From contig NZ_MTPW01000001.1 in assembly GCF_002954765.1 (NCBI RefSeq), forward strand, positions 372,001-436,000: a stretch of 64,000 nt of DNA, in the 5' to 3' direction. Positions 6,898-57,402 of the stretch are shown here, one piece after another. This stretch comes from Nonlabens arenilitoris. GTDB lineage: Bacteria > Bacteroidota > Bacteroidia > Flavobacteriales > Flavobacteriaceae. The notes under the pieces are model-generated. The model saw only the letters and a program-made list of their open reading frames with translations. It made no database searches and was not told the DNA's origin. Each line of letters starts with the position of its first letter. Position 1 is the stretch's first letter. The position numbers and the translations under genes are program-made.

Positions 6898-6942
6898 GTA
6901 AAGTGCAATAATTACTATAAACAACCATCCTGCTCTGTCTAG
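6898..6942 (-). promoter_or_regulatory. PUL operator/promoter (divergent copy) upstream of GH78
   Basis: Read towards the GH78 gene, the direct-repeat operator is CTAGACA-GAG-CAGGATG (6926-6942). The second half-site is good and the first is weaker. Twenty bases further is CACTTTAC, a poor match to TAnnTTTG. The operator ends 47 bp before the start codon. It is the least conserved of the twelve copies. Confidence 0.5.
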
Positions 6943-6981
6943 AATATTATTATTTAAGTATTTTATAAAACTATTGAAAAG

Positions 6982-7011
6982 AAAAAACCAAAGACAGTTA
7001 TATCTCTGGTC
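6982..7011 (-). terminator. Intrinsic terminator after the secreted beta-propeller lyase gene
   Basis: On the minus strand ACCAGAGA pairs with TCTTTGGT (8 bp with one G-T) around a short loop, followed by a run of six T. It lies 25 bp past the stop codon of the lyase at 7036. Confidence 0.7.
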
Positions 7012-7035
7012 TATTTGAAAAGGATATTTGATAGA

Positions 7036-9489
7036 TTATTTGATAACCAGTTTTGAATGATAAACTTTTGAATCACTATCAATAACCTTAACTAAATACA
7101 TTCCAGTTTTAAATCTACCCTTGTTTGAAATATCTATTCTGTTAGAATTGATAGTTTTTTGGTATACTAATTTACCCAGCATATCATATATCGCAACACT
7201 AGCTCCACTATTTTGATTCATTACAATCGAGAACTCATCCTTTGCTGGATTAGGGAATATTTTGATATCGCTAATTTTATCATTTACCTCTGATGTACTC
7301 AAAGTGGTAGATTCTACTATCCATTTAGAGCGATCTCCAGAATTAGGCACGTGTTCAATGATGCCGTTAGGGTTGTGGTATATATAATTTCCACCATTCC
7401 TGGTTTGAAATTGATACGTATTATCACTGCTATTATAAATGACAGTAAATTGTTTATCAGAATCTTCCCTAGGTGCTACAAAACCGGTATTAATAACATC
7501 ATTAGGTGGACTACCAGCGGCTCTTAAAACACCTCTATCTGTTCTTTTACTTTCAATATTATAGAAATTTCCTACCTGAACGATTTCCCATTCTTTATCA
7601 CCAGAAACCGTATTAATTCCATCTATACTTTCCACTACATCTGCGCCTACTGAATGCATATACTGACCAGTGACAAAGTTCTTAATGCGATAGATGTCTC
7701 CTGTTAAATCATTAGGGTCATCCATACGCCAGTTCACCGTGATAGGATTTGAAGTTACAGTATTATTAGTAGCGTTATAGGCTACAGCCTCTACAGTATA
7801 AGCCGCCTCTACAGTTGGCGCCCAATCTAAGGAATATGGTGTGGTAGTATCTGTTCCTAATAACGTACCGTCTACCATAAATTCGACTCTTGAGATACTT
7901 CCATTATCATCTGCAGCATCTGCTAAAATTTGAATAGTCTGACCTATATCATAAGTCTCGCCATCAAATGGAGCTGTTAACGACACTCTAAAAGGATCAA
8001 CGACAATGTCTAAATCAATGATTTGAAGATATAATGGTCTAGCGCTACCAGATGCATTTTCCATGAGATAGTAATGAAGTTTTCCATCTATGATATGAAC
8101 TTTACCATGGCTAAAAGTTCTACCTGTAGTTGCCTGATAAATTGTTGTAAAATTATTTGTTCCACCATCTGTTTTTTGAACTCTAACTCTTCCATTATTT
8201 AAATCGATAATGAAAACGTCATCACCTGCCGTATAAATAGCCTCACCACCTGAAAAATTCTCAGAAGTTGTAAAGTTCATCGCTCCGGCAGGTTTGTAGA
8301 TATGTAGATTTTTAGTGACGTTATTTTCATCATCTCTTACTCTACTTATAATATGAACATCTCCATTATCTGTAACTGTCCAATCAAAGCCACCAACTAT
8401 ATATACTTGATTTGCTTGTTGTGTTTGCACATAATCTCCTGGCTCCATGATTTTAATTAAATCAGCATCATAAAGTGGTAGACTAAAAGGTGTTCCATCG
8501 TGGCTTTTCCAATTAGAAGCTCCAGTTTGATCATCTGAATAGGCATAATATACACCATTTTGATATTGATACTTATCGTTATTATCCCCAGATCTACGTT
8601 GAAACCCTATGCGCATTTTACCGTTAACATATTTTAAACTACCATAAAGACCCCAATTATGAGTAATACCTGATTGATTTTGTGCATTTAAAGCATTGAA
8701 GTCGATAAAACTTGACCAGTTACCTGTGTTTGCATCATATTTGGTGAATTTATATTTACCATTATTATTTCCACCTTCACGCATATTCATGATTAACTCG
8801 CCTGAGTCGTTAAGAAAAAATGTTGGATAGGTTAATCCATCAAATTGATTTTGACTAATAGAACCAGTTAATCGTAAATGTTTATAGCCGCCAGCATTAT
8901 TCTGTACAAATTGACTAAGTGTGAATTGTGAGTCTGGTAACGTCGCCGCATTAGGTACTGAATAAGAATATCTAAAATAATCGTTAGCTAGACTACCATC
9001 TGAAGGTTTAGTCGCACTATACGCATGCATATCGTAAAGTAAATGAATAGTCCCATCTAAAGGACTAATCCCGACCGCTATGGTATTATGAGACTCACCT
9101 AGCCACCACTTATTTTGAAAACCTGTGTGAGTATGAGGGAATTGTATAGTCGCCATGGTTCCAGTAACCTTATTGTATCTGGTGAGCATGACATGTCTGT
9201 TTGTTTTACCGCCATGATACCAAGTCATAAAGACATAATCTCCATAGGTTTTAATACAATCTCCATGCGCTGAAATTTTATTTCCAAAAACATAATCATA
9301 AAGAGCACTGCTTCCATTATCTGGAGAAGAATTAGCTACTCTTGCACCACTGAAGTGTAGTCCAAAATCAGTGATTTTTACTTCACTTTCAAGAACTACT
9401 TGACTGAAAACCAACGATTGGAAAGAAAAGAATATCGTAAAAAGGAAAATAATTGAACTTGTATTTGCTTTAAATGCAATATTTCTCAT
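7036..9489 (-). CDS. Secreted BNR_4 beta-propeller ulvan lyase candidate (PL24/PL25-like) with Ig, RICIN-like and T9SS domains
   Basis: An 817-residue protein with a signal peptide ending near LVFSQ. Residues about 30-490 form a BNR_4-type propeller with the hallmark block WWLGESHNTIAVGISPLDG and then IHLLYDMHAYS. In PL24/PL25 ulvan lyases this fold uses His/Tyr/Arg residues to cleave rhamnose-3-sulfate to uronate linkages. Residues about 500-590 are an Ig-like module (SLTAPFDGETYDIGQTIQI). Residues about 600-735 are a RICIN/beta-trefoil-like module closely similar to that in the PL28 protein at 21187-22725. Residues about 745-817 are a type-A T9SS domain (IFPNPAKDEFSI, GMYLVKV). It is therefore exported across the outer membrane. 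It lies 71 bp downstream of rhaM. PL24 is my best guess at family; the fold assignment is firmer than the family. Confidence 0.75.
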   Translation of the reverse strand: MRNIAFKANTSSIIFLFTIFFSFQSLVFSQVVLESEVKITDFGLHFSGARVANSSPDNGSSALYDYVFGNKISAHGDCIKTYGDYVFMTWYHGGKTNRHVMLTRYNKVTGTMATIQFPHTHTGFQNKWWLGESHNTIAVGISPLDGTIHLLYDMHAYSATKPSDGSLANDYFRYSYSVPNAATLPDSQFTLSQFVQNNAGGYKHLRLTGSISQNQFDGLTYPTFFLNDSGELIMNMREGGNNNGKYKFTKYDANTGNWSSFIDFNALNAQNQSGITHNWGLYGSLKYVNGKMRIGFQRRSGDNNDKYQYQNGVYYAYSDDQTGASNWKSHDGTPFSLPLYDADLIKIMEPGDYVQTQQANQVYIVGGFDWTVTDNGDVHIISRVRDDENNVTKNLHIYKPAGAMNFTTSENFSGGEAIYTAGDDVFIIDLNNGRVRVQKTDGGTNNFTTIYQATTGRTFSHGKVHIIDGKLHYYLMENASGSARPLYLQIIDLDIVVDPFRVSLTAPFDGETYDIGQTIQILADAADDNGSISRVEFMVDGTLLGTDTTTPYSLDWAPTVEAAYTVEAVAYNATNNTVTSNPITVNWRMDDPNDLTGDIYRIKNFVTGQYMHSVGADVVESIDGINTVSGDKEWEIVQVGNFYNIESKRTDRGVLRAAGSPPNDVINTGFVAPREDSDKQFTVIYNSSDNTYQFQTRNGGNYIYHNPNGIIEHVPNSGDRSKWIVESTTLSTSEVNDKISDIKIFPNPAKDEFSIVMNQNSGASVAIYDMLGKLVYQKTINSNRIDISNKGRFKTGMYLVKVIDSDSKVYHSKLVIK

Positions 9490-9560
9490 AACCTATTTAT
9501 TTTGAGTTGAATGTAAAATTTAGATATCACAGGATTATCACGTACTTACCTTGATAAAAG

Positions 9561-9875
9561 TTATTCCATATAGAAGACCTCTTCTAAAGTTATAGAGACT
9601 GGCGAGTAATCAGGATTTACTTCCATGATATCTGCCATGAATCGCCACCATTTTTGAACAATGGGATGATCTGATAGTTCTTGTGAACCACTATCACCTG
9701 ATACTTTTTGAAAAGCAAACAGCGTATCAGTTTCATCATCTAAAAAAATAGAATATTCACTTACTCCATTATCTTTAAGAAGCACCTTGAGCTCAGGCCA
9801 TAATTCATCATGACGCTTTTTATAAACCTCTTTTTGTCCTTCTTTAATTTTCATTTTAAAGGCAAGTCGTTGCAT
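9561..9875 (-). CDS. rhaM: L-rhamnose mutarotase
   Basis: A 104-residue cytoplasmic protein, the usual length for RhaM. It interconverts the alpha and beta anomers of L-rhamnose. The start MQRLAFKMKI, the catalytic-region motif R21-H22-D23-E24-L-W-P-E-L and the WWRFMADIME block fit the family; His22 is the catalytic residue in the E. coli enzyme. It has no signal peptide. This is the only rhamnose-catabolic gene in the window, so isomerase/kinase or oxidative-pathway genes must be elsewhere. It sits between the CBM6-like gene and the lyase gene on the same strand, but a terminator precedes it. Confidence 0.93.
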   Translation of the reverse strand: MQRLAFKMKIKEGQKEVYKKRHDELWPELKVLLKDNGVSEYSIFLDDETDTLFAFQKVSGDSGSQELSDHPIVQKWWRFMADIMEVNPDYSPVSITLEEVFYME

Positions 9876-9894
9876 GTCTTAATGTTTATGAATT

Positions 9895-9928: not shown

Positions 9929-9958
9929 ATTATCTATACTGGTTTTAATAAAAGATGA

Positions 9959-10900: not shown

Positions 10901-10934
10901 AAGAATTAATTTATAACATTTGATTTGTTTCAAA

Positions 10935-10979
10935 CAATAATAGCTAGAAGAATACACATTCTTATCCTGTCCTATCCTG
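10935..10979 (-). promoter_or_regulatory. PUL operator plus -7 box upstream of CBM6-like gene
   Basis: Read towards the gene: CAGGATA-GGA-CAGGATA (10963-10979), then 20 bp, then TATTATTG (10935-10942), one mismatch from TAnnTTTG. Predicted transcription start is near 10928, 28 bp before the ATG at 10900. The two half-sites are identical, making this a perfect 10-bp-period direct repeat. Confidence 0.8.
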
Positions 10980-13508: not shown

Positions 13509-14903
13509 TTAGTCAAAGTTTCGTATTCCTGGAACTATTTTAATAGTGAGATCAGTTTGATGGCTTGGCCATTTCAAGACCACTAATTTTTGTGTATTTG
13601 AATCCCATATATAATTTGTAGGATCAAAATTTGTTGGTGATTTATATGTCTCCAACCCTACATTTTTCAAAGGATTATATAACAGTACTATATCTGAATT
13701 TATCAACACAGAAAAGCCATCCGGATAATGTCGATTAGCGCCTATAAATATTTTGGAGACACCTTTTTCATTATCTGTTTTAACCTTTAAGTTCAATGTA
13801 CGTGTAGCATGATTAAATAAGAAGTATTGAATATCACCAGCAATTGTTTGTGGAAAAGGTCTTGATATAATATCTGTAATATACTTACGCTCGACTGTAC
13901 CAACATCGGTACTATCACTAAAAATTGCCCACGTAGATGGTCCTGCTGGCATAAAATTTTGCATTGATCTGTTCCCCAAGAACCAAGCTTTAATAGAACC
14001 TACTCCCATAAGGTCAAAAACCTCAGCAGTTTTTATATACATTTCTTGATACTTCAACTGACCTAAATTTCCACTTATTAAAGTGTCTGTGCGAGCAAAG
14101 GTTGGAAAACCCCATTCACCAATAAGAATCGGTGCGTTTAATATATTAGATTCTTCATCTAAACGATCTAAATTGCTTTTTATAAAATTAATATCATTTT
14201 GGTATATATGTGGTGCAAAAATGATATTCTTTCTCTCAATAGGTGAATTCATTTCTGCATATTGATTGTTATCAATATTATCTCCTTTATTCATAAATAT
14301 AGATTGAAGCAGAATCATTTTATCAGGATTAATTTTCTGACTTTCATCAATAATTTTACGATATAGGGGAATAAGATATTGATCAGTCAAATTCTCATAA
14401 GAAATATCCATGGTTAACTTTCTAGGCTCGTTAATCACGTCATAGCCTAATACAGCTTGACTATTTGAAAATCGATTCCAAATTATTTTCCATGCCTGTA
14501 TGTATCTATCATGTTCTGAGTTTGTATTCCTCCAAAATTCTTCCCAGACAAATTTATCAAGACCATAAACTGTCATTTTAAATATAGTTTTTATCCCGTG
14601 CTTTTTTCCAAGATCAACTAAGGTATCTAACTTTTTGAGGTAATTAAAATCAAATTTACCGCCTGGGAAATCGCTTAATTTTCCCAATTCTAAACGAATG
14701 ACTTGAGTATTAGCACCCATTCTCACCATTCTTATATAATCATCACTATCAAAAAAGACCTCACCTTTATGATCATTTGTATTCACAACAAATCCTCTAG
14801 GTATAATGTGACGTCCTAAATCATCCCTCAAACCATGTTTTATTTGAGCTAGAGACAGAAAAGAAATCAAAGAAATTAGTAAAAAACCAAATCGGAATTT
14901 CAT
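13509..14903 (-). CDS. GH5-like (clan GH-A) glycoside hydrolase, secreted
   Basis: A 464-residue protein with signal peptide ending near LSLAQ. It has the TIM-barrel pattern of GH5: RGFVVNTNDHKG, a long beta4 block ending YDVINEP with acid/base candidate Glu159, and beta7 APILIGEWGFP with nucleophile candidate Glu263. The C-terminal 120 residues look like a beta-sandwich accessory domain. Bacterial GH5 proteins with this type of N-terminus (DDLGRHIIPRGF) resemble the endoglycoceramidase-like branch, but the substrate here is unknown; ulvan xylose or glucuronate linkages are plausible from context. It is first in an operon with GH3 and has its own PUL promoter, divergent from the PL28 lipoprotein. 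Confidence 0.8.
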   Translation of the reverse strand: MKFRFGFLLISLISFLSLAQIKHGLRDDLGRHIIPRGFVVNTNDHKGEVFFDSDDYIRMVRMGANTQVIRLELGKLSDFPGGKFDFNYLKKLDTLVDLGKKHGIKTIFKMTVYGLDKFVWEEFWRNTNSEHDRYIQAWKIIWNRFSNSQAVLGYDVINEPRKLTMDISYENLTDQYLIPLYRKIIDESQKINPDKMILLQSIFMNKGDNIDNNQYAEMNSPIERKNIIFAPHIYQNDINFIKSNLDRLDEESNILNAPILIGEWGFPTFARTDTLISGNLGQLKYQEMYIKTAEVFDLMGVGSIKAWFLGNRSMQNFMPAGPSTWAIFSDSTDVGTVERKYITDIISRPFPQTIAGDIQYFLFNHATRTLNLKVKTDNEKGVSKIFIGANRHYPDGFSVLINSDIVLLYNPLKNVGLETYKSPTNFDPTNYIWDSNTQKLVVLKWPSHQTDLTIKIVPGIRNFD

Positions 14904-14926: not shown

Positions 14927-14971
14927 GCAAAGTAAACGATGTGATTTAAAATATCGCCCTGTACTGTGCTG
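14927..14971 (-). promoter_or_regulatory. PUL operator/promoter upstream of GH5-like gene
   Basis: Read towards the gene: CAGCACA-GTA-CAGGGCG (14955-14971), then 20 bp, then TACTTTGC (14927-14934), a shifted match to TAnnTTTG. The operator ends 51 bp before the start codon. It is back-to-back with the PL28 promoter at 15045-15089. Confidence 0.65.
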
Positions 14972-15044: not shown

Positions 15045-15089
15045 CAGCATAGTTCAGGACAGATTGCATATGCTCAATTATTATTTTTG
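15045..15089 (+). promoter_or_regulatory. PUL operator plus perfect -7 box upstream of PL28 lipoprotein
   Basis: CAGCATA-GTT-CAGGACA (15045-15061), then exactly 20 bp, then TATTTTTG (15082-15089), a perfect TAnnTTTG. Predicted transcription start is near 15096, which rules out the upstream ATG at 15064 and supports the start at 15106. Confidence 0.85.
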
Positions 15090-16107: not shown

Positions 16108-18958
16108 TTAAAAAGATTTTAAGTATTCAATTTGATAATCTCCTGATCCTAAAATCACAGCTCCATCGATAATATCAAGTGTATTTTCACTTCTATAATC
16201 CTCAAGTAAATTACTGTTTATACTTAAGCTTTCTAGTTCATCAGTAGTTAGAATAACCTTAGCTTTAGTATTAAATGGCACTTCTAACCGCATGTTTAAC
16301 AGTCCATTATTTATACTCCATTTGTTCCTTATGCTGCCGTAAGGAGTTGGAACATCAACCTCTGTATTTGTAATTTCACGCGGAAATTCTGGATCTACTG
16401 TAAATAACTTATATCCTGAATGTGATTCAGAAGACTCAATACCGCCTAGAGATTCATAAAAGTAAGCTGCAAATCCGCTATGCATAGGGTGATTTAAAGA
16501 GTTAGTCGGACCTTCCATCTTTTCCCATTCAAACTGACGCTCTGGCCACGTAGTAAACCCTGAATTCATCACATAGGTCTGACTAGGGAAATCTGGTGTC
16601 GTTAGTATTTGGTATGCTAAATCTGCTTTTTTATGTTTAGATAGTACAGTATAAATATATCTGTTTCCATGTATTCCTGTAGAATGATGTCCTCCTTTTA
16701 CCTCTACTATATCGTGAACTAAACCATTTACCACATTTTCTATGTCTTTTTCTTGCACCATATTAAACTGTAATGCCTGTACGGTTGCTGTTTGACTTTG
16801 ATACCATTTATATTTTGTTTTAGGAATACTAACTAAAAATTCATGATTAAATGCTTTCTTTAAGGCTTCTTTTTCTTTCTTCATTCGTGCTTCATAGACT
16901 GCATCATTATTGATCTTTGCAAATGTTTCCATGATATTTAAGACATCGTAGAAATACGCATTTGCTGATATAATTGGATCGCATTCCATGGCACTTGGGT
17001 TTTTTCTTCTATCCCACAATGGTGGACACCAGTCACCCATACCATCTTGCATAATTCCGTTTTCATCTTTAAAATTCAAATAAAAATCAGTCAAGTTTTT
17101 CATGTCATCATAATATTCTTTTACCAAAGCATCATCACCATAAAATTTATAATTATACCAAGGTAAATACATGAAAGCAACTCCCCAATCTATTTTTGCA
17201 TAAGTAGATGTACGTTTTCCGGGAGCAATCATTGTAGGGACTTGAAACTTCTGTTCTGGATTATTATGACCTTTTGTTGGTCGCATTTGAGTACGGATAT
17301 CTTCCATATATTTCTTATAGAAGTCGTACATATCATAATTGTACAGCGCATATTCACAAAATGCATGTGCATCTCCTAACCAGCCGCATTTCTCACGATG
17401 TGGACAATCTTCTGGTATACCATGAAGATTATCTACAATCGTCCATTTACTGATGTTGTGCATTTTATTAAGCAACACATCTGAAGAAGTAAAACTTCCT
17501 GTTTCTTGAATATCTGTAGCTACTAAAACCGCTTTAATCATATCAGCATCAGGCTTACTGGTGACACCTTTTATTTTTGCGTATCTAAATCCATGGTAAC
17601 TGAATTTAGGTTCCCACGATTCTAATTGATCACTCTTACAGATATATTTGTAAATCTGTGGCATACCATTAGCACCACCACCTGTAGAACCAAGAAAAAT
17701 ATCTTTACCATTAGTTAGTAAAGCCTCCGTTGTGATAATTTCAATTAACTGATTTTTCTGCTCCTGTACATTTATTTCAACCCAACCAGCTATATTCTGT
17801 CCAAAATCTACAATCCATTCTCCATCTGCTCCCTTGAATATATTTTGTGGTTCGAGTACTTTTAGTTTTTTAATTGGTTGTATTTGTTGCGCACTTATTT
17901 TATTTAGTTTAGGCTTGGTTTCTTTTGCATTTTCCCATGAGGCATCATCATAATTAACCGCTGTCCAGTCTCCTAATTCGTAATTTGCGTCATAAGTATC
18001 GCCTCCATAAATATTATTGAATACAATAGGTCCAGTGGCTTCTTTCCAAGTCTTATCAGTATAAAAGTCTGTTACAGTACCATCCTCATAGGTTAACTTA
18101 ACCAGTAACCTTACTGCAGGCGGTCCATAAGCTAAATCTTTTTCAGATTCTGGATCGCGTTTCCAGGAAATATTCTGTCCATAAAAGCCATTCCCTAAAA
18201 TAATTGCAAAAGCGTTCTCACCAGATTGAACCGCTTGAGTGATATCATAATTTACATAGTAAGCTTGCTTATCATAATTTGATGGTGCTGGATCTAAAAC
18301 ATGGTCACCTACCTTTTCACCATTTAGATATATCTCATAATAACCTAATCCACAAATGTAGGCTTGCGCATTTTTAACTTTTTTTCTACGTCTATTTTAT
18401 TTCTAAAATAACTAGTTGCAAAGCCGTCAACTTTAATGGGCGCTTCCATTCGTCCTGTTTTATAGTCTCTAAAACGATGGGCTGAAGTTCTAGTATCTTT
18501 ATTTAAGGTAATCCATTTTGAAGAACCCCAATTTTCGGTAGTCATCAATCCAGTTTGAAATTTCTGGATCTTTGACCAGTTTAAAACCCATAATTTTCAT
18601 CCCAAATTTTCACTTTCCAATAATATGTGGTCATAGCATTTAATGACTCACCTTTATACTTTACAAATGTAGATTTATCGCTTTCTATTTTTTTAGAATT
18701 CCATATATCAGCATCATCTTCATTTAATAATTCTTTTGAGGATGCTACAAGAATATGATATGCAGATTGTGACTTGTTATAACCTGTTGCATCTACTATC
18801 CATGAAAAAAGTGGTTGCTCACTTTCAATAGAATTTGGGCTTTCTTTTGCATTTACTAAAAGCTGACTAAATGATAGGGAATAATTTTTTTCAGTATTTT
18901 CAATACAAGAAAAACAAATTATCAATAATAGGAAAAAGGAAATAAATAGTTTTTTCAT
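16108..18958 (-). pseudogene. Alpha-L-rhamnosidase GH78 interrupted by two single-base frameshifts
   Basis: Three adjacent pieces together encode a full-length GH78 of about 950 residues. Piece one (18958-18581) holds the lipoprotein signal (LIICFSC) and the first Fn3-like module. Piece two runs to 18345 and reads NWSKIQKFQTGL, then SSKWITLNKD. Piece three is open from about 18379 to 16108 and includes YICGLGYYEIYLNGEKVGDH, WIVDFGQNIAGW, the GH78 catalytic block DCPHREKCGWLGD and TTWPERQ. The first break is at a short T/A tract near 18579-18586, where an extra T would restore frame. The second is a seven-base A run (sense GAAAAAAAG, 18379-18385), where eight would restore frame. No other damage is seen, which argues for recent lesions, sequencing error or slippage. 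It lies 39 bp after the toroid-lyase gene. Confidence 0.82.
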
Positions 18959-20937: not shown

Positions 20938-20982
20938 TCAATATAGTAGTAGCGCTTGAAAGAGCCATCCTGTTTTGTCCTG
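20938..20982 (-). promoter_or_regulatory. PUL operator/promoter upstream of toroid-lyase candidate
   Basis: Read towards the gene: CAGGACA-AAA-CAGGATG (20966-20982), then 20 bp, then TATATTGA (20938-20945), a partial match to TAnnTTTG. The operator ends 48 bp before the start at 20917. Confidence 0.68.
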
Positions 20983-21186: not shown

Positions 21187-22725
21187 TTATCTCACGATAA
21201 GTTTAGTATGATAAATTTCATTATTAGTTCCTACAACTTTTACTAAATATATACCTGAATCAAATTTATCCATATTATTTACGTAAAATTTTGATTCACT
21301 TGACACCGTTTGATAAATTAATTTACCCAATAGATTATAGATTTGAACACTAGCTCCATTTACATTTTCCATGGAGATAGTAAAGCTATCAACGGCAGGA
21401 TTAGGATATACTTTTATCCCAGATTTCACAAAATCATCTGTACTTAATGTTGTAGACTCTACAATCCATTTACTTCTATCATCAAGGTTTGCAGAATGTG
21501 TAATCGTATTATTGGTATCGTGATACAAATATCTATTAAGGTTACGTGTTTCAAAAGTAAAGGTTCCATCTGTATTTTCTATAACCGTCCATATCTTATC
21601 TGTATCTGTATTAGGCGGTGCAAAGTTTGTACTTACTAAGGATGGTGAAGAGGATCCTCCTGTAAATCTTATAACACCTCTTACCTGGCTATCAATATTA
21701 AAATAATTAGAGTTTGCAACACCAGACGCAGTGATCTCCCATTCTTTATCTGATCCACTGCCTGATGTACTCGCGACAATGCTCGAACCAGATGAGGTCA
21801 AATATTCACCAGTAGCCACATTCTTAATCCTAACAATATCTGTGGTAGGCTGAGTATTATTATCAGGAATTTCTACTCTTTGATAGGTAGTGTTAGCCCA
21901 TCTCATTTGAGCTCTTCCACCTTTAACACGATAGACTCCGTATCTGATTCCCGATTCTATTCCTCTTTCAGGTTCTGGAATGTTCCAGTTAAATACTTGA
22001 CCACCTATGGTCGCGTCAGAATAATGAATTTTTAAATTAGGGTCATTAGGGTCTTGTCTAAAGCCTACTTCTAGGACGATATCAACAATCTCATCTTTTA
22101 GGACATTTCTAAGAAAAACCTCAGTTCTACCAGCTGCTCCTGATCCTCCTCTAAAATTAATTTGCTCTCTCCATATATCAAATGACACTTGAACTTGATT
22201 ACCATTAGTATCAGTACCATAAACTGGTCTTGCTAAATACAAACATATGGCTGGGTCATTAGGTCCACCGCCACCAGTGTGTTTTCCTTTTGTTTGCATA
22301 AAATAACTTCCTGTACTTCCAAAGGTTCCGGTATTACCCGCCTCAAGAATTCTTAATGTTCCAGTGAATCGAGCAAAACTCCCTACACCAGTTTCTTGAG
22401 ATCTAGGTAGCGATCGTTCTATTCTAGGTTGTAAAGTATTAGGTGCGTCCCAGTGATTAGAATTAAACGTTATGTTATAGGCGCCCCAAGTATTGTTATA
22501 CACATTAGTCTCATAATAATCTGCATAACATGTCCTATCGTCTACCGTACCTACGTTATCAGGATTTGATATATCGACATTTCTCGTGTTATTGTTTTGA
22601 AAACCCCCTGAAGTTGGGCATGCTATACTAGGATTTGTATCCTCATCAGGAGCTGTTTGCGCCATCAAAGCATACGAAAACATCGTGAAGTATATGATTA
22701 TTAACGTTTTGAACATATTATTCAT
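21187..22725 (-). CDS. PL28 ulvan lyase, secreted, with RICIN-like and T9SS domains
   Basis: A 512-residue protein with a signal peptide ending near YALMAQ. Residues about 45-285 are the PL28 catalytic jelly roll ([61 protein letters not shown] with Tyr281). As I recall, a Tyr at this position is proposed as catalytic in the characterised Nonlabens ulvanivorans PL28 enzyme. Residues about 295-430 are a RICIN/beta-trefoil-like module. Residues about 440-512 are a T9SS sorting domain ([22 protein letters not shown]). It cleaves ulvan between rhamnose-3-sulfate and uronate, leaving an unsaturated uronate, outside the cell. The predicted transcription start lies almost on the ATG, so Met4 (22716) is an alternative start. 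It is monocistronic. Confidence 0.93.
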
Positions 22726-22735: not shown

Positions 22736-22780
22736 GAAATTTAATACATATAACTAGAAACGGTATCCTGAACTATACTG
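22736..22780 (-). promoter_or_regulatory. PUL operator plus -7 box upstream of secreted PL28
   Basis: Read towards the gene: CAGTATA-GTT-CAGGATA (22764-22780), then 20 bp, then TAAATTTC (22736-22743), one mismatch from TAnnTTTG. The box ends only 11 bp before the ATG at 22725, implying a near-leaderless mRNA or use of Met4. Confidence 0.82.
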
Positions 22781-28243: not shown

Positions 28244-31200
28244 TTAAAATGAATTTATCTTAAGCTGTATCGTATGTTTTCCTGGAGCCAGTCTTATATA
28301 ATCAAAAGCTGATGGTACTTTTTCTCCATTATGAATTAAATCCTTACCGTCCAATTCGTTCAAAGAAAATTCTGCCACCATATTTCCAGGTATTTCAATT
28401 TCATAAGTTTGTAACCTCGCACCGTTATAAGTGTATTTAGCTTTTATAGGACCTCTAACCGTAGGAACTTCTATTTCACTATTTTTTAATTTACTCATTT
28501 GCGGTTGTATAATTGCTACACCAAATCCTGCTGTTTTAGGCTTAATTCCCCATAATCCTCTAGGAATTATATTTGCCGGTGCGGCACCCCAAGCGTGATT
28601 CCAATCTAAGTTCACCTTATACTCATAATCCCAAGCCTCTAAACTTATGGTAGAACCTACTCTAATCATATTATACCAGCTCCTTTTAGTTTTACTAGCA
28701 AGAAGTTCCAATGCATAATCCTCTTCGCCAGCATTGTACAAACCATCCATTAAAAATTGCGCACCATAAACACTACATGCCATTCCTCTGGATTTCACAT
28801 GCTCGACAACAGATTCCATATATTCTTCTGGAACCAAACCAAATGCCAAAGGCATCATATTAGCATGTAAAGAAGCATGAGATGTCCCTATTCCATCTAC
28901 ATAAACACCACGTTTCTTATCAAACATTTGTTCATTTATCGCTTTTTTTGCTTTAGCCGCTCTGTATTCGAAGTCTAAGGCTTCATCTGTTTTACCTAAT
29001 ACCGTAGCAAACTCAGCCATTATCTTCATATTTTCATAAAAAAAGGAATTAATAACCGTACTGTAAGGTTTGAATACGAATCCGTCACGCTCTCCTTTTG
29101 TTTTACTACGTGCAAAATTCTTAGCCGGCCAATCTACAATATCAGTTAACGGTTTTTTATAGCCTGGTTTAAAGCCTAACTTATACATAAACTCTTCAGT
29201 CACTTTAGTAGAAGTAATGAGACCATCTTCATTAGAAAGTTCATAAAGCGTTTTATGCTTTAAAGGTTCATAATAACGTTCAATAAGCTCTGTATTACCT
29301 GTATACATGTAATCTGTATAAATTAGTAATGCTACATGTTGTTGCCATTCTGTAGGCCAAGTAGGGTTCTCCATGAAATACTCAATGGTACGTCTAGCTA
29401 TGGCAAATTCTCTATCTGTAGTGTAATGGCTTAATTGATTTAGGTATGCATCTGCCTCATACGGGATACGCTCCCTATCTCCATCTACGTATAACCCAGC
29501 AAAAGTGGTTGCTTTTATAGAATATTTACAAAAATCCCAGACTTCATTAAGCACCTCATTATCACTTTTAAAACTACTAGCGTTATCATCCCAATAGCTC
29601 GTGAATCTCAATTGTTCAAAATCTTCTGATGTTAAGGTTGCTCTAGCACCTTCAACTTCGGCATATCTAAAAGGTTGTAATACAGGCCATCCTTCTTGCA
29701 ATGGAATAGCTTTACTAGGTCCTTTCATACGCTTATCTGGAACTGGATTAATCTCTATTCGATACTTTGTTTTTCCAGGTGCAACATCAACTTTAATTTC
29801 CTGATAACGAATATTACTTTTTGCTGGCGGAGTTCTATTCACATTACCATTATCATCTAGCATTTCACCAATTCTAAAAGTTAAGGTATGTGACTCTATA
29901 GCACTATAATTAAAATCAATTGTAGCAAATGCAGCCTTTCCAAAATCCATGAAATAGGTATCGTCTCTTTTTTCAAACCTTGCTGGGTGAACTCTATCTA
30001 TTACATATTTATTCTCTGTTGAAATGATATAGTCTTTAGGTTTTCCTGTTGTGAATTTTTGAGCTTCAGAATAATCTACTAGACGGTTTTCTTGTTCCCA
30101 AATTCTAACTTTCCAATAATAGGTTTTACCTACTTCTAACGGGTTCCCTGAATACTCTACATCGGTAGATTGTGTAGAAGCTACTCTACCACTATCCCAT
30201 ACGTCACCATTGTTATTATCAATATGCTTTTTAGTAGAAGAAACTAGGATTTGATATGCACCTTGAAATTTAGAACCTAATGGAACTGTCCAACCAAATT
30301 CTGGTTTTAAATCAAATATTTCTACCTCTGTGGAAGGTTCTCTAATAAGCTCTACTGTTAAATCTGTAGGTGCAGCTCTATAAGCATTACTATTTCTAGC
30401 AATTAACTCATCTGTTTTTACGCGCAGGTTTTCAGCAATATTTTGGTATCTTTTTTTTCCTATTAAATTTTTAATTTCCTTAGGGTCTTTTTCTAAATCA
30501 TAAAGCTCTTCAATACTTTTATCATTAACATATCTAAAATATTTCCACTTTTTAGTTCTTACTCCTTCACTAGGAGGAATATTTTCAAAATCCCAAATGT
30601 GCTCTATAAGAACAGTATCTCTCGCAATGGTATTCGTTTCTTTTTTTACTATAGGCAATAAGCTTTTTCCTTGCCATGTTTCTGGTGCTTTCAAACCTGC
30701 TAAATCTACTATAGTTTGAGGTACATCAATATTAAGCACCATATCACTAATATCTTGGTGCTTATTCTCCCTAGGGTCAAAGACAATTAGGGGCACTCTT
30801 ATAGAGTTATCATACATAAGCCATTTACCAGCCATTTGACGCTCTCCAAGAAAGTAGCCGTTATCTCCCATAACGATAATAACGGTATTATCATCAAGAC
30901 CTTTTTCTTCAAGCTTTTCTCTAATTTTTTTATTTCCTGATCTACACCAGAAATCATTCTGTAATAACCTTTTACACTATGCTGATATTTTTCTGAATTA
31001 TCATAACGCCATGTCCAGCGTAGTCTGTTGAACCCATCTCTCACTATTTTAGGTTGAGCTTTAAAATATTTATCATCTCCTAGTTCTGGATCAGGCATAG
31101 TGATGTTTTCTAACATGCTATCCATATCAGACTGCCAGAAATATTGATCTTCTGCTGGGTCATGAGCATGTGGCGCGCTAAAACTTAAAGAAAGACAAAA

Positions 31201-31835: not shown

Positions 31836-31880
31836 TAAAATTACGATTTAAGGACTTAGTTTCTATCCTGTTCTATCCTG
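31836..31880 (-). promoter_or_regulatory. PUL operator plus -7 box upstream of sulfatase-GH78
   Basis: Read towards the gene: CAGGATA-GAA-CAGGATA (31864-31880), a perfect direct repeat, then 20 bp, then TAATTTTA (31836-31843), one mismatch from TAnnTTTG. The operator ends 87 bp before the ATG. Confidence 0.82.
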
Positions 31881-34642: not shown

Positions 34643-37600
34643 TTATAAATTAACCCTTAGACCTAAAATAAATTCTCTATCATTAGGGTATCTTAAATTA
34701 TCTAATGCAGGTGTCAGAGCGCTTCCTCTATTTCCCAATTCGGGATTATAACCATTGTAATTAGTCCAAGTCAATAAATTATTAATAGAAAAATTTACAG
34801 AGGCATTTTTGATTAGTGGCAATTTTTCCAATATCCAATCATCGAGCCTGTATTCAAAACGCAAATAACGCCATTTGATAAAACTACCATCTGTTACAAA
34901 GAAACTATTAGGCCCTAACCTATTTTGAGGAACTCTATCCAATCTAGGATATACCGTAACATCTCCTGGTTGTGTCCATGCACCATAAATACGCTCTGGA
35001 CCAGGACTTTCCGTACCAGCAGCAAAATCATTTCTTAATTCATCCCATCTACTATAAATATCATAATTCAAAGTAAAATCAAAAAGCATACTCACTGTGA
35101 AGTTTTTGTAACTGAAATCATTTGAAAATCCACCATAAGTAGTTCCTAGTCCATTACCTATTATTTTTCTATCGTCTGCGGTAATGCTAAAATCATTATC
35201 TAAATCCTCCCATATGATATCACCGCCTTGAAGCGTTCTTCCAGATATTCTTACTTGATTTACATTTCCTGAATAAAGTTGTCCATTCAAAGTATAATTT
35301 AAGAAATTACCATCTTGATCAAAATTAGGTGTCAATCTAGTACCGTTATCGTCATAGGCATTTGACTCATCATATTGATAGACTCCAAGATTATTATATC
35401 CGAAAATACTACCTATAGATTCACCTTCTCTAATAACGTAACTTCCTCTTGGACCTGCAAAAAATTCAGTTCCATTTGCTAAGCTAGTCACCTTATTTTC
35501 TAAATAACCAATATTAAAATTACTGGTCCAGGTAAAATTATTAGTACGTATAATATCACCAGTTATATTAAAATCAATTCCACGATTATCTACTGCTCCA
35601 GCATTTCTAATTATACCTGTAAAACCTGATTCTTCTGGTAACGGTGTAGTTGCTAATAAATCAGTTGTTTTTTTCTGCCAGAAATCCAGATTCACTTGCA
35701 CTCTACTTTTGAAAAGCCCTAAGTCAAACCCTAAATTTATAGATTCTGTTTGTTCCCAAGATAATTCAGCATTTCCTAGTCTTGTTGGAGCGATACCTGA
35801 TATGCCATTATAGGCAGCTCCTGGCTCTAGAACTCCTGTAAATAAATAATTACCAATTCTTTCATTACCGACAACGCCCCAACTAGCTTTGAATAACAAA
35901 TTATTGATTACTTTACTATCCAGTAAAAACCCCTCTTTACTAGCCCTCCACCCAAGCGTTGCTGACGGGAAATAACCGAATTCATTCTGTTCACCAAATC
36001 TAGAAGATCCATCACGTCTTAATGTTGCTCCTACTAAGTATTTATTCTTGTAGTCATAATTGAACCCACCAAATAAAGAATACAAATTATGCCTTTCGTT
36101 TGCATTATTGTCTCCTGTAATTGTTCCAGGGTTTGCGTTATTCAAGGTTTCTATATAACCGTTAGCAAATTCCCTAGATCGAAAGTCAGTATTTTCAATG
36201 AAATACCTTTGGGTTTGCATTCCTGCAAAAGCTCCAAAGCTATGGTTATCCCACTTATTACTATAATTAACAAAATTTTCTTGTTGAATATCATAAGTTA
36301 AATTCTGACGAACCCTACCTTGATCAAATCCAGTTTCAAATCTATTTGCTATTAATCTTGGATCAAAGTCGTCTCTTTTTCTATAACTAAAATTGATCCC
36401 TAACGTAGATTTCACAGTCAATTTAGGGAGGATTTCAAATTGCGCATAATTGAACGTCTGTATCCTCCAATCTCTATCATCCCTTTTTTGAAGATTTGCA
36501 AAAGCAAGTGGATTTTTACGACCTGCGATAGTAGGAGTAAAGGTTCCATCTGGATTAGTTAATGGTAAGTACGGCAACCTTTCTACTAAATGAGTAAAAA
36601 TACCTCCTTCAGTTAGACCTACCTTATCTTGATGTGTTAAGGTGTTTCTAGTTCCAAATTTAAGTTTTTTTGTGGGTGTAAAATCAAGTTTGATCTGTGT
36701 GTTAATTCGTTTAAAACCACTATTAATAACGATACCTTCTTCTTTTAGGAATCCAGTATTCCAATAATATTTTAATTTTTCATTTCCACCACTAAAAGCA
36801 ACATTAGTTTGGTTCCTAATAGCTGTTCTTGTTAATAAATCTTGAAGATCAAAATCATTTCTTCGTAAAAGACTCAGACTATCACGTTCTAAATTAGTCA
36901 AATTGTCTAGGTTTCCAGACCTTATTCTTTCTAACAGAAAACGCTCCTCAGTATTAACTACTCTTAAATCACCAACTAAATTATTAAAACCAGTAATATT
37001 TGTAACATCAATACGTGTCTTCCCAGACTTACCAGATTTTGTTGTTATTATCACCACACCATTTGCAGCCTTAGATCCATAAATCGCAGCAGTTGCTCCA
37101 TCCTTTAAAACCTCCAAAGACTCTATATCACCTGGATCAATATTATCTATATTATCGAGTTGCTGACCATCAACAACATAAAGAGGAGAAGTTCCGCTAC
37201 CAAAAGTAGAAACACCTCTTACGCGAATATCAAACCCTTGACCTGGACCATTATTATTTAAAATTTGCACACCTGCAACCCTACCTTGAATAGCATCAAA
37301 AGCTTGTACTGGAGTAGCTTTTACTATTTCTTTAGCTTTTACTGTTGAGACAGCTCCGAGTAGTTTTTCTCTTTCGATAGGCTGATAACCAATGATAACA
37401 ATCTCTTCAAGACTTTCAGCACTTTCCGCAAGAGTTACATTAATTATAGTATCAAATCCAACTTCAACATTTTTTGTTTCATAACCTGTATAAGAAAATA
37501 ATAGAGTAGGTGTGCTCGATGTCTTTGATAAAACTATTGTATAATTACCATTAATATCAGTTGTTGTACCGTTTCTAGTATCCTTTTGAAGTACATTTAC

Positions 37601-37747
37601 CCCAAGTAGTGGTTCACCATCATCACCTACAACCTTACCTGTAACAGAATTTTGAGCATGTAAAGAGGTAGTAAAACTATAAAACAACATTGTGATTAAA
37701 AATGATAGCATTGATAAAGACAACCGTACTTTAAAAATTTGTTTCAT
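34643..37747 (-). CDS. susC: SusC-family TonB-dependent outer-membrane transporter
   Basis: A 1,034-residue protein of typical SusC length. It has a signal peptide (SFTTSLHAQ), a carboxypeptidase-D-like N-terminal domain (NSVTGKVVGDDGEPLLGVNV, residues 33-120), a plug domain with the SusC block LYVVDGQQLDNIDNIDPGD and IESLEVLKDGATAAIYGSKA, then NGVVIITTKSGK, and a long beta-barrel ending FILGLRVNL. With SusD it imports oligosaccharides, here inferred to be ulvan-derived, using TonB-supplied energy. It is the only SusC in the window. It has its own PUL promoter (37822-37866) rather than reading from the sugar-symporter gene upstream. Confidence 0.97.
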   Translation of the reverse strand: MKQIFKVRLSLSMLSFLITMLFYSFTTSLHAQNSVTGKVVGDDGEPLLGVNVLQKDTRNGTTTDINGNYTIVLSKTSSTPTLLFSYTGYETKNVEVGFDTIINVTLAESAESLEEIVIIGYQPIEREKLLGAVSTVKAKEIVKATPVQAFDAIQGRVAGVQILNNNGPGQGFDIRVRGVSTFGSGTSPLYVVDGQQLDNIDNIDPGDIESLEVLKDGATAAIYGSKAANGVVIITTKSGKSGKTRIDVTNITGFNNLVGDLRVVNTEERFLLERIRSGNLDNLTNLERDSLSLLRRNDFDLQDLLTRTAIRNQTNVAFSGGNEKLKYYWNTGFLKEEGIVINSGFKRINTQIKLDFTPTKKLKFGTRNTLTHQDKVGLTEGGIFTHLVERLPYLPLTNPDGTFTPTIAGRKNPLAFANLQKRDDRDWRIQTFNYAQFEILPKLTVKSTLGINFSYRKRDDFDPRLIANRFETGFDQGRVRQNLTYDIQQENFVNYSNKWDNHSFGAFAGMQTQRYFIENTDFRSREFANGYIETLNNANPGTITGDNNANERHNLYSLFGGFNYDYKNKYLVGATLRRDGSSRFGEQNEFGYFPSATLGWRASKEGFLLDSKVINNLLFKASWGVVGNERIGNYLFTGVLEPGAAYNGISGIAPTRLGNAELSWEQTESINLGFDLGLFKSRVQVNLDFWQKKTTDLLATTPLPEESGFTGIIRNAGAVDNRGIDFNITGDIIRTNNFTWTSNFNIGYLENKVTSLANGTEFFAGPRGSYVIREGESIGSIFGYNNLGVYQYDESNAYDDNGTRLTPNFDQDGNFLNYTLNGQLYSGNVNQVRISGRTLQGGDIIWEDLDNDFSITADDRKIIGNGLGTTYGGFSNDFSYKNFTVSMLFDFTLNYDIYSRWDELRNDFAAGTESPGPERIYGAWTQPGDVTVYPRLDRVPQNRLGPNSFFVTDGSFIKWRYLRFEYRLDDWILEKLPLIKNASVNFSINNLLTWTNYNGYNPELGNRGSALTPALDNLRYPNDREFILGLRVNL

Positions 37748-37821: not shown

Positions 37822-37866
37822 CAATTTTATATATAATTTAAACTTTAGGTATCCTGTACTGTTCTG
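37822..37866 (-). promoter_or_regulatory. PUL operator plus -7 box upstream of susC
   Basis: Read towards susC: CAGAACA-GTA-CAGGATA (37850-37866), then 20 bp, then TAAAATTG (37822-37829), one mismatch from TAnnTTTG. The operator ends 102 bp before the ATG. Confidence 0.8.
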
Positions 37867-45479: not shown

Positions 45480-45524
45480 CAAGGATATAAATTAACATGT
45501 ATACTTATGTCCTGCACTATACTG
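45480..45524 (-). promoter_or_regulatory. PUL operator plus -7 box upstream of GH2-xyl operon
   Basis: Read towards GH2: CAGTATA-GTG-CAGGACA (45508-45524), then 20 bp, then TATCCTTG (45480-45487), one mismatch from TAnnTTTG. Predicted start of transcription is about 24 bp before the GTG at 45449. Confidence 0.82.
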
Positions 45525-45594: not shown

Positions 45595-45640
45595 CAGTAT
45601 AGCACAGGACAGAACAACTACTATAACTACGTTACTTTTG
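45595..45640 (+). promoter_or_regulatory. PUL operator plus perfect -7 box upstream of uxaC
   Basis: CAGTATA-GCA-CAGGACA (45595-45611), then 21 bp, then TACTTTTG (45633-45640), a perfect TAnnTTTG. It is divergent from the GH2 promoter, with the two operators 70 bp apart. Confidence 0.85.
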
Positions 45641-53084: not shown

Positions 53085-53085
53085 T

Positions 53086-53880: not shown

Positions 53881-53881
53881 A

Positions 53882-54724: not shown

Positions 54725-54813
54725 ATTATATTATTTGTTTTTTAGTCATCTTTAAGAGCAGTCTATAGGTTGTAATTATGAACTGCGCTCAAAAAGACCG
54801 TTTCAATATTTAT

Positions 54814-55995: not shown

Positions 55996-56011
55996 TATGT
56001 TATATTAATTA

Positions 56012-56027
56012 CGCTTTTGCGCAAGCG
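56012..56027. repeat. Degenerate palindrome copy, 14 of 16 bp
   Basis: CGCTTTTGCGCAAGCG between the mannonate oxidoreductase and uxuA; two substitutions from the iterated palindrome. Confidence 0.5.
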
Positions 56028-56041
56028 TGATTCTAATCCAT

Positions 56042-56869
56042 TTACACACCACTATAAGCACTGAATCCACCATCAATAGGAACGACTATTCCAGTGATAA
56101 ATGCAGCACCATCATCGCACAACCACTTTACGGTACTTACTAAATCATCTGGAGTACCATAACGCCCCATAGGAGTCTGACTGATGATTTGCTCACCACG
56201 TGGCGTGGCAGAACCGTCACTATTAGTCAATAGTGCTCTATTCTGGTCTGTCAAGAAAAAACCTGGAGCGATAGCGTTAACACGAATTCCCACTTTTGAA
56301 AAGTGGACTGCAAGCCACTGTGTAAAATTTGAAACAGCTGCTTTTGCACCGCTATAGGCTGGTATCTTAGTTAGTGGTGTAAAGGCATTCATCGAGGATA
56401 TGTTTAAAACACTACATCCATCACGACCTACCATATCTTGAGCAAAAACTTGTGTAGGAATCAGTGTGCCTAAAAAGTTGAGATTAAAAGTAAATTCAAT
56501 TCCTTTAGGGTCTAAATCAAAGAATGTTTTAAATCCTTCAGTAGCGTTTTCTAAATCTTCTGGTTCTAAAAACGGATTGCTAGTCGTCCCTAAAGGATGA
56601 TTTCCACCAGCACCATTGATTAAAATATCACATGGACCATAAGCTTCATTGATGACTTTTTTTGCTTCAACCAGCGACTCTTTTTCTAAAACATTTGCCG
56701 CTACACTTATAGCGCTTCCACCGTTTTTATTAATAACATTAGCTACTTGATCTGCTGCTTCTTTTTTTAAGTCCAGTACAGCAATATGATGACCTTGTTT
56801 AGCTAATTCTACTGCCATAGTACTGCACAACACACCACCAGCTCCTGTTAATACAATTGTTTTGCTCAT
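56042..56869 (-). CDS. SDR-family D-mannonate oxidoreductase (UxuB function)
   Basis: A 275-residue short-chain dehydrogenase with Rossmann motif TGAGGVLCSTMAVELA, INGAGGNHPLGT, the catalytic YSGAKAAVSNFT pair and the end block VPIDGGFSAYSGV. This SDR type with the GGNHP insert is the common replacement for UxuB in Bacteroidota and converts D-fructuronate to D-mannonate. It is first in the operon ahead of uxuA (46 bp) and has its own PUL promoter. It is cytoplasmic. Confidence 0.88.
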   Translation of the reverse strand: MSKTIVLTGAGGVLCSTMAVELAKQGHHIAVLDLKKEAADQVANVINKNGGSAISVAANVLEKESLVEAKKVINEAYGPCDILINGAGGNHPLGTTSNPFLEPEDLENATEGFKTFFDLDPKGIEFTFNLNFLGTLIPTQVFAQDMVGRDGCSVLNISSMNAFTPLTKIPAYSGAKAAVSNFTQWLAVHFSKVGIRVNAIAPGFFLTDQNRALLTNSDGSATPRGEQIISQTPMGRYGTPDDLVSTVKWLCDDGAAFITGIVVPIDGGFSAYSGV

Positions 56870-56907
56870 TTATTATTATGATGTTTTATTGAATAGATTT
56901 AAAAAAC

Positions 56908-56952
56908 TAAAGTTACTAGCCAAACAGAAAGATTGTATCCTGTTCTATCTTG
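56908..56952 (-). promoter_or_regulatory. PUL operator plus -7 box upstream of the uronate operon
   Basis: Read towards the oxidoreductase: CAAGATA-GAA-CAGGATA (56936-56952), then 20 bp, then TAACTTTA (56908-56915), one mismatch from TAnnTTTG. The operator ends 66 bp before the ATG. Confidence 0.8.
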
Positions 56953-57170
56953 TTTAAACGACACATATTTCGCATAACATTTTAGCAATCAAAATTTTAA
57001 TACAAACAACAATCTTAAAAAACCATCCTTACAATAAATCTTTGAAAGAATGAGACCATTACTTCATGGGAAAATGGAAAAAACATACCATCCATATACC
57101 TTACGGTTTACAATTACAGTTATTTGTGATATTCAAATAAACACCTGACAGTCAACTAATAAAATAGTAC

Positions 57171-57186
57171 CGCTTTCGCGAAAGCG
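57171..57186. repeat. Iterated 16-bp palindrome, perfect
   Basis: CGCTTTCGCGAAAGCG midway between the two divergent PUL promoters. Confidence 0.85.
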
Positions 57187-57357
57187 AAAAAGCCATAAGA
57201 ATACTGCGACAAATAGCTCACCTAGAAATTCAAGCTCAGCTCCTAGTTTAAAAAGTTATCATCTAAAACTAATGATCAACACCATACTAGAATAGTATTT
57301 CAAAAATGACTATTATCAAGTATCACGAGTTCAAATAGCTTTATTAACTAAAATAGT

Positions 57358-57402
57358 CATGATAGTACAGGATTAAAACATAAATATCAACAACTAAATT
57401 TG
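57358..57402 (+). promoter_or_regulatory. PUL operator plus perfect -7 box upstream of the PL38-GH106 operon
   Basis: CATGATA-GTA-CAGGATT (57358-57374), then exactly 20 bp, then TAAATTTG (57395-57402), a perfect TAnnTTTG. Predicted start of transcription is near 57409, leaving a leader of about 150 bases. Confidence 0.78.

What the first reader, a model, noticed from the sequence alone, without database searches (positions are those of the whole stretch)
6898..57402. One promoter architecture shared by twelve transcription units of the locus
Read in the direction of the downstream gene, twelve sites have CAGnATA-N3-CAGGA(T/C)A (a 10-bp-period direct repeat), followed after 20-21 bp by a TAnnTTTG-like Bacteroidota -7 box. 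Operators are at 6926, 10963, 14955, 15045, 20966, 22764, 31864, 37850, 45508, 45595, 56936 and 57358 (17 bp each). Three -7 boxes are perfect (15082, 45633, 57395) and six have one mismatch. All twelve point the same way relative to their gene and most end 38-102 bp before it. The repeat sits where the -33 element would be, which suggests an activator replacing -33 recognition. A 10-bp direct repeat bound on one face of the helix fits AraC-type DNA-binding domains, such as those of hybrid two-component systems. No regulator is encoded in the window.
Basis: seen in the sequence. Interest (0 to 1): 0.82.

Follow-up and report, generated by a model that had tools for sequence, protein, structure and literature searches.

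The report
Rhamnose-regulator operators across an ulvan locus
Twelve promoters of a seaweed-sugar (ulvan) gene cluster, and one of the same genome's rhamnose operon outside it, share a repeated DNA tag near a fixed distance from the start signal, and comparison with relatives points to a GntR-type sugar regulator encoded just beyond the window as its reader.

Summary
A whole-genome scan for operator + 20 bp + TAnnTTTG (up to 3 mismatches) returns 12 places: 11 of the 12 listed sites, and one new site before the rhamnose operon about 10 kb beyond the window; the reversed control returns 1. Site 6926 is weak and has no -7 box.

The AraC/HTCS reading is not supported. The likely reader is a GntR protein with a LacI-type sugar domain (C1:445396-446436), divergent from that operon. 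Across 397 family genomes the operator co-occurs with close orthologs (66/14/13/304, Fisher 1e-47). Among genomes with rhaEW, the first rhamnose gene, it is in 66 of 78 with the regulator and 2 of 17 without. All 79 distinct divergent GntR-rhaEW regions examined carry the site and no other conserved word except A/T-only 6-mers. The box is at 20 bp in 64 of 64 rhaEW promoters (19-21 compared). Paralog clades have other recognition helices and other 10-bp repeat words, with the box again about 20 bp away.

Best model: a rhamnose-responsive GntR activator bound head-to-tail at about -49 to -33, replacing -33 recognition. Binding, inducer and activation are inferred.

The parts
6926..6942 (-). operator 1, CTAGACAGAGCAGGATG, before GH78 rhamnosidase (4086-6878); weak, no -7 box found
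   Evidence: absent from the composite genome scan
10963..10979 (-). operator 2, CAGGATAGGACAGGATA; -7 box TATTATTG at 10942-10935; gene start ATG 10900, later than the longest-ORF start (protein with T9SS sorting tail)
14955..14971 (-). operator 3, CAGCACAGTACAGGGCG; box TTACTTTG at 19 bp; before GH5-type gene (13509-14903)
15045..15061 (+). operator 4, CAGCATAGTTCAGGACA; perfect box TATTTTTG 15082-15089; before PL28 ulvan lyase (ATG 15106 probable)
20966..20982 (-). operator 5, CAGGACAAAACAGGATG; box TATATTGA (2 mismatches) at 20 bp; before ORF ending at 18998 (ATG 20917)
22764..22780 (-). operator 6, CAGTATAGTTCAGGATA; box TAAATTTC; before PL28 ulvan lyase (21187-22725)
31864..31880 (-). 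operator 7, CAGGATAGAACAGGATA; box TAATTTTA; before sulfatase gene (30799-31776)
37850..37866 (-). operator 8, CAGAACAGTACAGGATA; box TAAAATTG; before SusC-type receptor (34643-37747)
45508..45524 (-). operator 9, CAGTATAGTGCAGGACA; box TATCCTTG; before GH2, then FGGY kinase, isomerase-like and sugar transporter genes
45595..45611 (+). operator 10, CAGTATAGCACAGGACA; perfect box TACTTTTG 45633-45640 at 21 bp; before UxaC (45662)
56936..56952 (-). operator 11, CAAGATAGAACAGGATA; box TAACTTTA; before SDR (56042-56869), then UxuA, KduI, SDR, DUF4861 and TRAP transporter genes
57358..57374 (+). operator 12, CATGATAGTACAGGATT; perfect box TAAATTTG 57395-57402; before alginate-lyase-fold gene (57563), GH106, BNR_4

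Best explanation
The CAGnAYAGnn-CAGGAYA repeat is the operator of one GntR-family regulator with a LacI-type sugar-binding domain, encoded at C1:445396-446436, 9.4 kb to the right of the window and divergent from the rhamnose operon (rhaEW, isomerase-like, FGGY kinase, FMN dehydrogenase and one more gene). Two winged-helix domains bind the two 10-bp words head to tail on one face of the helix, at about -49 to -33. A sigma-A -7 box (TAnnTTTG) lies 20 bp further on, and no -33 box is conserved. When rhamnose, or a sugar derived from it, is bound, the protein recruits RNA polymerase in place of -33 recognition. This switches on the ulvan-locus units and the rhamnose operon together. Shown here: the sites, their genome specificity, the spacing, and co-inheritance with and adjacency to the regulator. 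Inferred: physical binding, the inducer, and activation rather than repression.
For: Own-genome specificity: 12 composite hits, 11 listed sites and the rhamnose operon. Co-occurrence with the regulator 66/14/13/304, Fisher 1e-47; among rhaEW genomes 66 of 78 with the regulator versus 2 of 17 without. Site by rhaEW in 20 of 20 loci that I picked around the regulator; within 700 bp upstream of the regulator gene in 65 of 80 named loci, against 0 of 400 Markov controls; in 79 of 79 distinct divergent intergenic regions, where no other word but A/T-only 6-mers passes the null. The matrix came from the window alone, so relatives are out of sample. Spacing: 64 of 64 rhaEW promoters at 20 bp (19-21 compared), 48 of 49 where 10-31 bp were compared (partly the same species), 29 of 36 other sites (28 of 34 without two that are rhaEW sites on recount). 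Clade-B paralogs beside rhaEW have nAACAGTnCAGAACR or a near variant at the same 20 bp in five of the seven clade-B loci read, both words changed together, with residue 56 E->V. Galactose-operon paralogs have CTRGTAGGKW-type repeats. Fold: winged helix plus LacI-type domain.
Against: No binding or expression data. Most characterised GntR proteins are repressors and read inverted repeats (general knowledge). The rhaEW form (GTACAGTAC) has a partial dyad (0.53 against 0.73 for the direct repeat). 14 genomes match the pattern without the close ortholog and 13 have the ortholog without an exact match. 15 of 80 named loci have no site of score 17 within 700 bp of the regulator gene. Site 6926 has no box. 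The own-genome rhaEW site is one of the weaker ones (CCATATAG..., score 16.3). Galactose-clade spacing is looser (18-22 bp in 11 of the 14 loci with repeat and box). Two of seven clade-B loci (L034, L035), where the GntR gene is not next to rhaEW, had no site, and the clade-B change rests on five related loci.
Confidence: 0.68

Rival explanations
1. The same GntR protein reads the repeat but is a repressor released by rhamnose; the site blocks the -33 region.
For: Most GntR and LacI-type regulators are repressors (general knowledge). The site overlaps the place of a -33 element, as a blocking site would.
Against: A blocking site does not need a fixed 20-bp phase to the -7 box, yet 64 of 64 rhaEW promoters have it and 29 of 36 other sites do. 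No other word that could be a -33 element is conserved. The six-unit array keeps its last unit at 20 bp (L026).
Confidence: 0.18
2. The GntR dimer reads a palindrome, C-n-GTAC-A-GTAC-n-G, in the manner of AraR, and the conserved GGAYA on the right is an accessory contact. This rival concerns the binding mode only and can be true together with the best explanation's regulator.
For: rhaEW promoters often read CAGTACAGTACAG. The dyad at axis 6 scores 0.53, the best of the dyads tried. The closest solved DNA-binding domain is that of AraR.
Against: The direct repeat of period 10 scores 0.73. Both words have a pyrimidine at positions 5 and 15. Three- and six-unit head-to-tail arrays exist (L018, L026). 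Clade-B sites change both words in the same direct sense.
Confidence: 0.15
3. An AraC-type or HTCS regulator binds the repeat.
For: AraC domains contact two major grooves about 10 bp apart (general knowledge). HTH_18 proteins are present in all 16 operator-rich genomes checked.
Against: Reported HTCS motifs have a mean period of 21 bp. The own genome's only HTCS has a strong match in 12 of 30 operator genomes. The operator changes with the GntR clade. The two helices of one AraC domain differ and are not expected to read identical words (general knowledge).
Confidence: 0.04
4. Another, unidentified factor co-inherited with the rhamnose pathway reads the repeat, and the GntR protein acts elsewhere.
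For: Co-occurrence of the operator with rhaEW is nearly as strong (Fisher 2e-41).
Against: rhaEW genomes without the close regulator have the operator in only 2 of 17; none of the four rhaEW loci without a GntR relative that I read had it (L037-L040). No second conserved word for the GntR protein was seen in 79 intergenic regions, A/T-only 6-mers apart.
Confidence: 0.06

Closest known systems
AraR of Bacillus subtilis (GntR winged helix + LacI-type sugar domain)
   Same: Closest solved DNA-binding domain (4egy, E 4.2e-8); same two-part build; sugar-operon control (recalled).
   Different: AraR is a repressor on palindromic operators (recalled). Here the operator is a 10-bp direct repeat 20 bp before the -7 box.
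NanR, FarR, NagQ and TauR
   Same: GntR-family proteins reported on direct repeats (PMC4494728 and PMC5320631, passages). NanR dimers stack on (GGTATA)3 (PMC8012715, passages). TauR is called a transcriptional activator.
   Different: Other subfamilies (FadR, HutC, MocR). NanR repeats are less than half a turn apart and its operator lies downstream of the RNA polymerase site.
DeoR-type RhaR rhamnose regulators
   Same: Rhamnose regulons with imperfect direct repeats of 10-11 bp period (PMC3870299, passages).
   Different: Different protein family. The held text of that paper has no occurrence of GntR or Flavobacteria.
Bacteroides HTCS and AraC-type RhaR
   Same: Direct-repeat operators for glycan or rhamnose genes in the same phylum.
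   Different: Period of about 21 bp; AraC DNA-binding domain.

Membership tests
GntR superfamily regulator | N-terminal GntR winged helix | tested here: met
   PF00392, 38.1 bits over cut-off 27
AraR-type GntR/LacI hybrid | C-terminal LacI-type sugar-binding domain | tested here: met
   Peripla_BP_3 at 25.2 bits is just under its cut-off of 26.5; the model of the ortholog L087 (pLDDT 84.5) matches LacI-type structures at E about 1e-11
AraR-type GntR/LacI hybrid | palindromic operator | tested here: not met
   direct repeat of period 10 scores 0.73, best dyad 0.53; three- and six-unit direct arrays; a partial dyad remains in rhaEW promoters
AraR-type GntR/LacI hybrid | repressor relieved by its sugar | not testable with these tools
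   no expression data
HTCS (hybrid two-component) regulon | HTCS co-inherited with the operator | tested here: not met
   the own genome's only HTCS matches strongly in 12 of 30 operator genomes
HTCS (hybrid two-component) regulon | direct repeat of about 21-bp period | tested here: not met
   period 10; published mean 21
Sigma-A promoter of Flavobacteriaceae | TAnnTTTG at -12 to -5 | tested here: inconclusive
   box at 19-21 bp in 11 of 12 window sites, 20966 with two mismatches; the -12 to -5 position is from PMC9723704, passages; transcription starts were not mapped here

The most novel reading that the evidence does not exclude
Flavobacteriaceae have a family of GntR/LacI-hybrid sugar sensors that work as activators by laying winged helices head to tail on 10-bp words that end where the -33 element should be. 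Each clade has its own word (rhamnose CAGnAYAGnn, second rhamnose clade ...CAGAACA, galactose CTRGTAGGKW) in nearly the same frame to the -7 box, and the word can be iterated to six copies. Whole polysaccharide loci join a monosaccharide regulon by gaining this one module.
Probability: 0.5. Interest if true: 0.75.

Novelty: new variant of a known kind. Interest (0 to 1): 0.62.

Why it matters
My searches listed no paper that describes a regulator of ulvan use in Flavobacteriia (open-access library; listings, with passages of one ulvan paper, PMC8511951). A named regulator, an operator that picks out the regulon from a whole genome, and a likely monosaccharide signal would make induction of a twelve-promoter seaweed-polysaccharide locus directly testable, and could help to predict rhamnose regulons in many marine and soil genera. 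It would also show how a GntR-type protein, usually a repressor on palindromes, can act as an activator on head-to-tail words at Bacteroidota promoters.

Tried and rejected
The presence of AraC proteins did not discriminate: all 16 genomes checked have them, 3 to 34 each. The FadR-type GntR beside KDPG aldolase (C1:368452) was considered; the best matrix hit near it, inside a coding region, scores only 12.2.

Ulvan specificity of the operator: rejected. 18 of 20 PL28 genomes have it, but so do 62 genomes without PL28.

The first regular expression for the galactose-clade repeat had the wrong spacer; redone. The single-sequence structure model was poor (pLDDT 41) and was not used; the 22-sequence model (84.5) was.

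The clade-B pattern with one mismatch was not specific: 20 of 39 genomes and 31 matches against 24 for the reversed control (my count). Exact matches occur in 5 of the 9 genomes outside clade A (G108 twice, G222, G357, G384, G064) and in 0 of 30 clade-A genomes; but the pattern was made from sites of four of these genomes, so only the second G108 match and the G064 match are independent.

Rows dropped before counts. In one search only promoters with site score 12.5 or more were pooled (64); L044 and L046 were left out (there the site lies before the gene that precedes rhaEW), L026 because rhaEW is cut off, L030-L032 as other clades. In one search, 4 of 80 named loci held no rhaEW and 27 of the other 76 had no site within 400 bp of it; all 27 have a 64-65% identical rhaEW. 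I opened 7 of these 27 and in all 7 the site lies before the inserted first gene; the other 20 were not opened, but none of the 27 is among the 15 loci that lack a site within 700 bp of the regulator gene. One search used loci L007-L026, L041-L068 and L078-L166 with the two genes divergent and 30-700 bp apart (88 regions, 79 distinct). In one search two of the 36 'non-rha' sites are rhaEW sites on recount (L026 at 19363, and a shifted copy in L015).
Full report
Where the window lies. It holds an ulvan locus: two PL28 lyases, an endo ulvan-lyase-type protein with a PLH30 domain, GH78, GH106, GH3, GH88, GH2, sulfatases, a SusC/SusD pair, UxaC, UxuA, KduI and a TRAP transporter. None of the 39 window ORFs scanned is a DNA-binding regulator.

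The observation. A matrix built from them separates them from the rest of a 144-kb stretch. The best unlisted site there, score 16.3, is CCATATAGCACAGGATA at C1:446581, which ends 49 bp before the first gene of a rhamnose operon, with TAAATTCG exactly 20 bp on. The composite pattern, operator + 20 bp + TAnnTTTG with up to three mismatches, has 12 places in the whole genome: eleven of the twelve listed sites and this one; the reversed control has one. The exception, 6926, is the weakest listed site and has no box.

The candidate regulator. The rhamnose operon starts with an aldolase/dehydrogenase fusion (rhaEW as named in PMC3870299, passages). Divergent from it is a 346-residue protein with a GntR winged helix and a LacI-type sugar domain. 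Its closest solved DNA-binding domain is that of AraR. A 22-sequence AlphaFold model of the ortholog in L087 (pLDDT 84.5) matches LacI-family structures in the PDB.

Co-inheritance. The exact operator CAGNAYAGNNCAGGAYA occurs in 80 of 397 genomes of the family, often in clusters; the reversed control occurs in 7 of them by my count of the table, one hit each. Close orthologs of the GntR protein are in 79 of the 397 (line drawn where scores fall from 326 to 265 bits). Operator and regulator co-occur as 66/14/13/304 (Fisher 1e-47). rhaEW is in 95 genomes. Among these, 66 of 78 with the regulator have the operator, against 2 of 17 without it (Fisher 2e-8). The operator thus follows the regulator, not only the pathway. 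Against this stand 14 operator-positive genomes without the close ortholog, some of which chance would give, and 13 genomes with the ortholog but no exact match. I read loci of 9 of these 13 (G001, G049, G121, G154, G236, G256, G317, G348, G388): all nine have a near variant, such as CGGTACAGTACAGGACA, before rhaEW or, in G317, before the gene preceding it. Counts across genomes treat related genomes as independent, although 65 of 237 genera have the operator.

Adjacency. In 20 of 20 loci that I picked around the regulator an operator lies before rhaEW, with more sites before SusC-type, sulfatase, GH78 and other genes in many of them. In 80 named loci (Winogradskyella, Psychroserpens, Polaribacter, Algibacter, Tamlana, Flavobacterium, Arenibacter and others), 65 have a site of score 17 or more within 700 bp upstream of the regulator gene; Markov controls gave 0 of 400. 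In 79 of 79 distinct divergent regulator-rhaEW intergenic regions the site faces rhaEW. With site and box masked, only A/T-only 6-mers just pass the null (72 and 70 of 79, null maximum 69); no 7-mer or 8-mer does. So I see no second operator-like element for the GntR protein.

Spacing. In 64 distinct rhaEW promoters the TAnnTTTG box is at 20 bp (TA and TT 64 of 64, final G 60 of 64; spacings 19, 20 and 21 were compared). In 49 named promoters with a site, where 10-31 bp were compared, the best box is at 20 bp in 48; the other has an equal match at 20 (this set overlaps the first in species). Of 36 other sites, the window's twelve included, 29 have a box at 20 bp and other spacings have one or two each (28 of 34 without two rhaEW sites). 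In Flavobacterium-type operons with an inserted first gene (RhaT by Pfam in L143, the one scanned) the box appears one base further. The -7 box lies at -12 to -5 in Flavobacterium psychrophilum (PMC9723704, passages), so the operator covers about -49 to -33. Spacing conserved to this degree is what an activator in contact with RNA polymerase needs. It is not proof.

Direct repeat or palindrome. Over 42 sites, column agreement at period 10 is 0.73; the best dyad reaches 0.53. L018 has three and L026 six head-to-tail 10-bp units; the last unit of the L026 array is 20 bp from a perfect box. rhaEW promoters also contain GTACAGTAC, so a partial dyad remains possible.

Specificity follows the protein. 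A second GntR clade (41-46% identity) occurs near rhaEW in other genomes. Its recognition helix reads SRDT(I/V)V(R/K)AY instead of SRDTVEKAY. In five of the seven clade-B loci read, the rhaEW promoter has nAACAGTnCAGAACR or a near variant 20 bp before the box, with A at both position 3 and position 13; in the other two (L034, L035) the GntR gene is not next to rhaEW and no site was found. A reciprocal genome search is compatible with this but weak (see Tried and rejected). A third group, mostly with SRDTV(L/I)(M/T/S)AF, lies by galactokinase, galactose-1-P uridylyltransferase and aldose epimerase genes in the loci scanned. Of 19 such paralog loci fetched (two of them, L179 and L184, with other helices), 14 have a CTRGTA-N4-CTRGTA repeat with at most one mismatch and a box within 12-32 bp, and in 11 of these the box is 18-22 bp away. 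Four rhaEW loci without a GntR relative have no such site (L037-L040).

Why not AraC or HTCS. The genome has six HTH_18 proteins, one of HTCS size. That HTCS has a strong match in 12 of 30 operator genomes. Reported HTCS motifs have a mean period of 21 bp (PMC3878776, passages).

What is new. GntR proteins on direct repeats are known: FarR, NagQ, NanR, and in the MocR group GabR, TauR and PdxR (PMC4494728 and PMC5320631, passages; NanR stacking, PMC8012715, passages). A 10-11 bp direct repeat for rhamnose regulators is known in the DeoR family (PMC3870299, passages). A survey of GntR motifs held one Bacteroidetes protein (PMC4494728, passages). My searches listed no report of this operator or regulator (open-access papers only, most seen as listings). 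Hence: a new variant of a known kind.

Limits. All evidence is comparative. Inducer, binding and sign of control are inferred. The confidences of the rivals overlap, because the palindrome rival concerns binding mode only.

Noticed in passing
window 28244-31776 (-): The sulfatase and the SGSH_C/GH78 parts lie in different, overlapping frames, while homologs in L018 and L026 are single ORFs of 1171 and 1189 aa: a frameshift or an assembly error in this copy.
   Followed up: partly
window 16108-18958 (-): A GH78 gene appears broken: its N-terminal Ig domain (18581-18958) is separate from its catalytic part (16108-17664).
   Followed up: no
L026 915-971: Six head-to-tail 10-bp operator units before a SusC-type gene, the last one 20 bp from a perfect TATTTTTG.
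   Followed up: partly
L017, L022, L023, L047, L049: Pairs of neighbouring GntR/LacI-hybrid genes beside the rhamnose operon; a heterodimer or duplicated sensor is possible.
   Followed up: no
L167-L185: Galactose genes of the family lie beside a related GntR/LacI-hybrid regulator and a CTRGTAGGKW-type direct repeat about 20 bp before a -7 box.
   Followed up: partly
G010, G242, G394 (same genus): The three same-genus genomes searched show no operator, no regulator ortholog, no rhaEW and no PL28: the regulon may have been gained or lost as a block.
   Followed up: partly
L102, L123, L124, L132, L143, L157, L165, L044, L046: In these rhamnose operons a 349-356 aa gene precedes rhaEW (RhaT by Pfam in L143, the one scanned), with a site such as AAGGATAGTACAGGACA before it and the box about one base further away.
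   Followed up: partly
G246: The one PL28-bearing genome of 20 without a close regulator ortholog also lacks the exact operator; its ulvan genes may be controlled differently.
   Followed up: no
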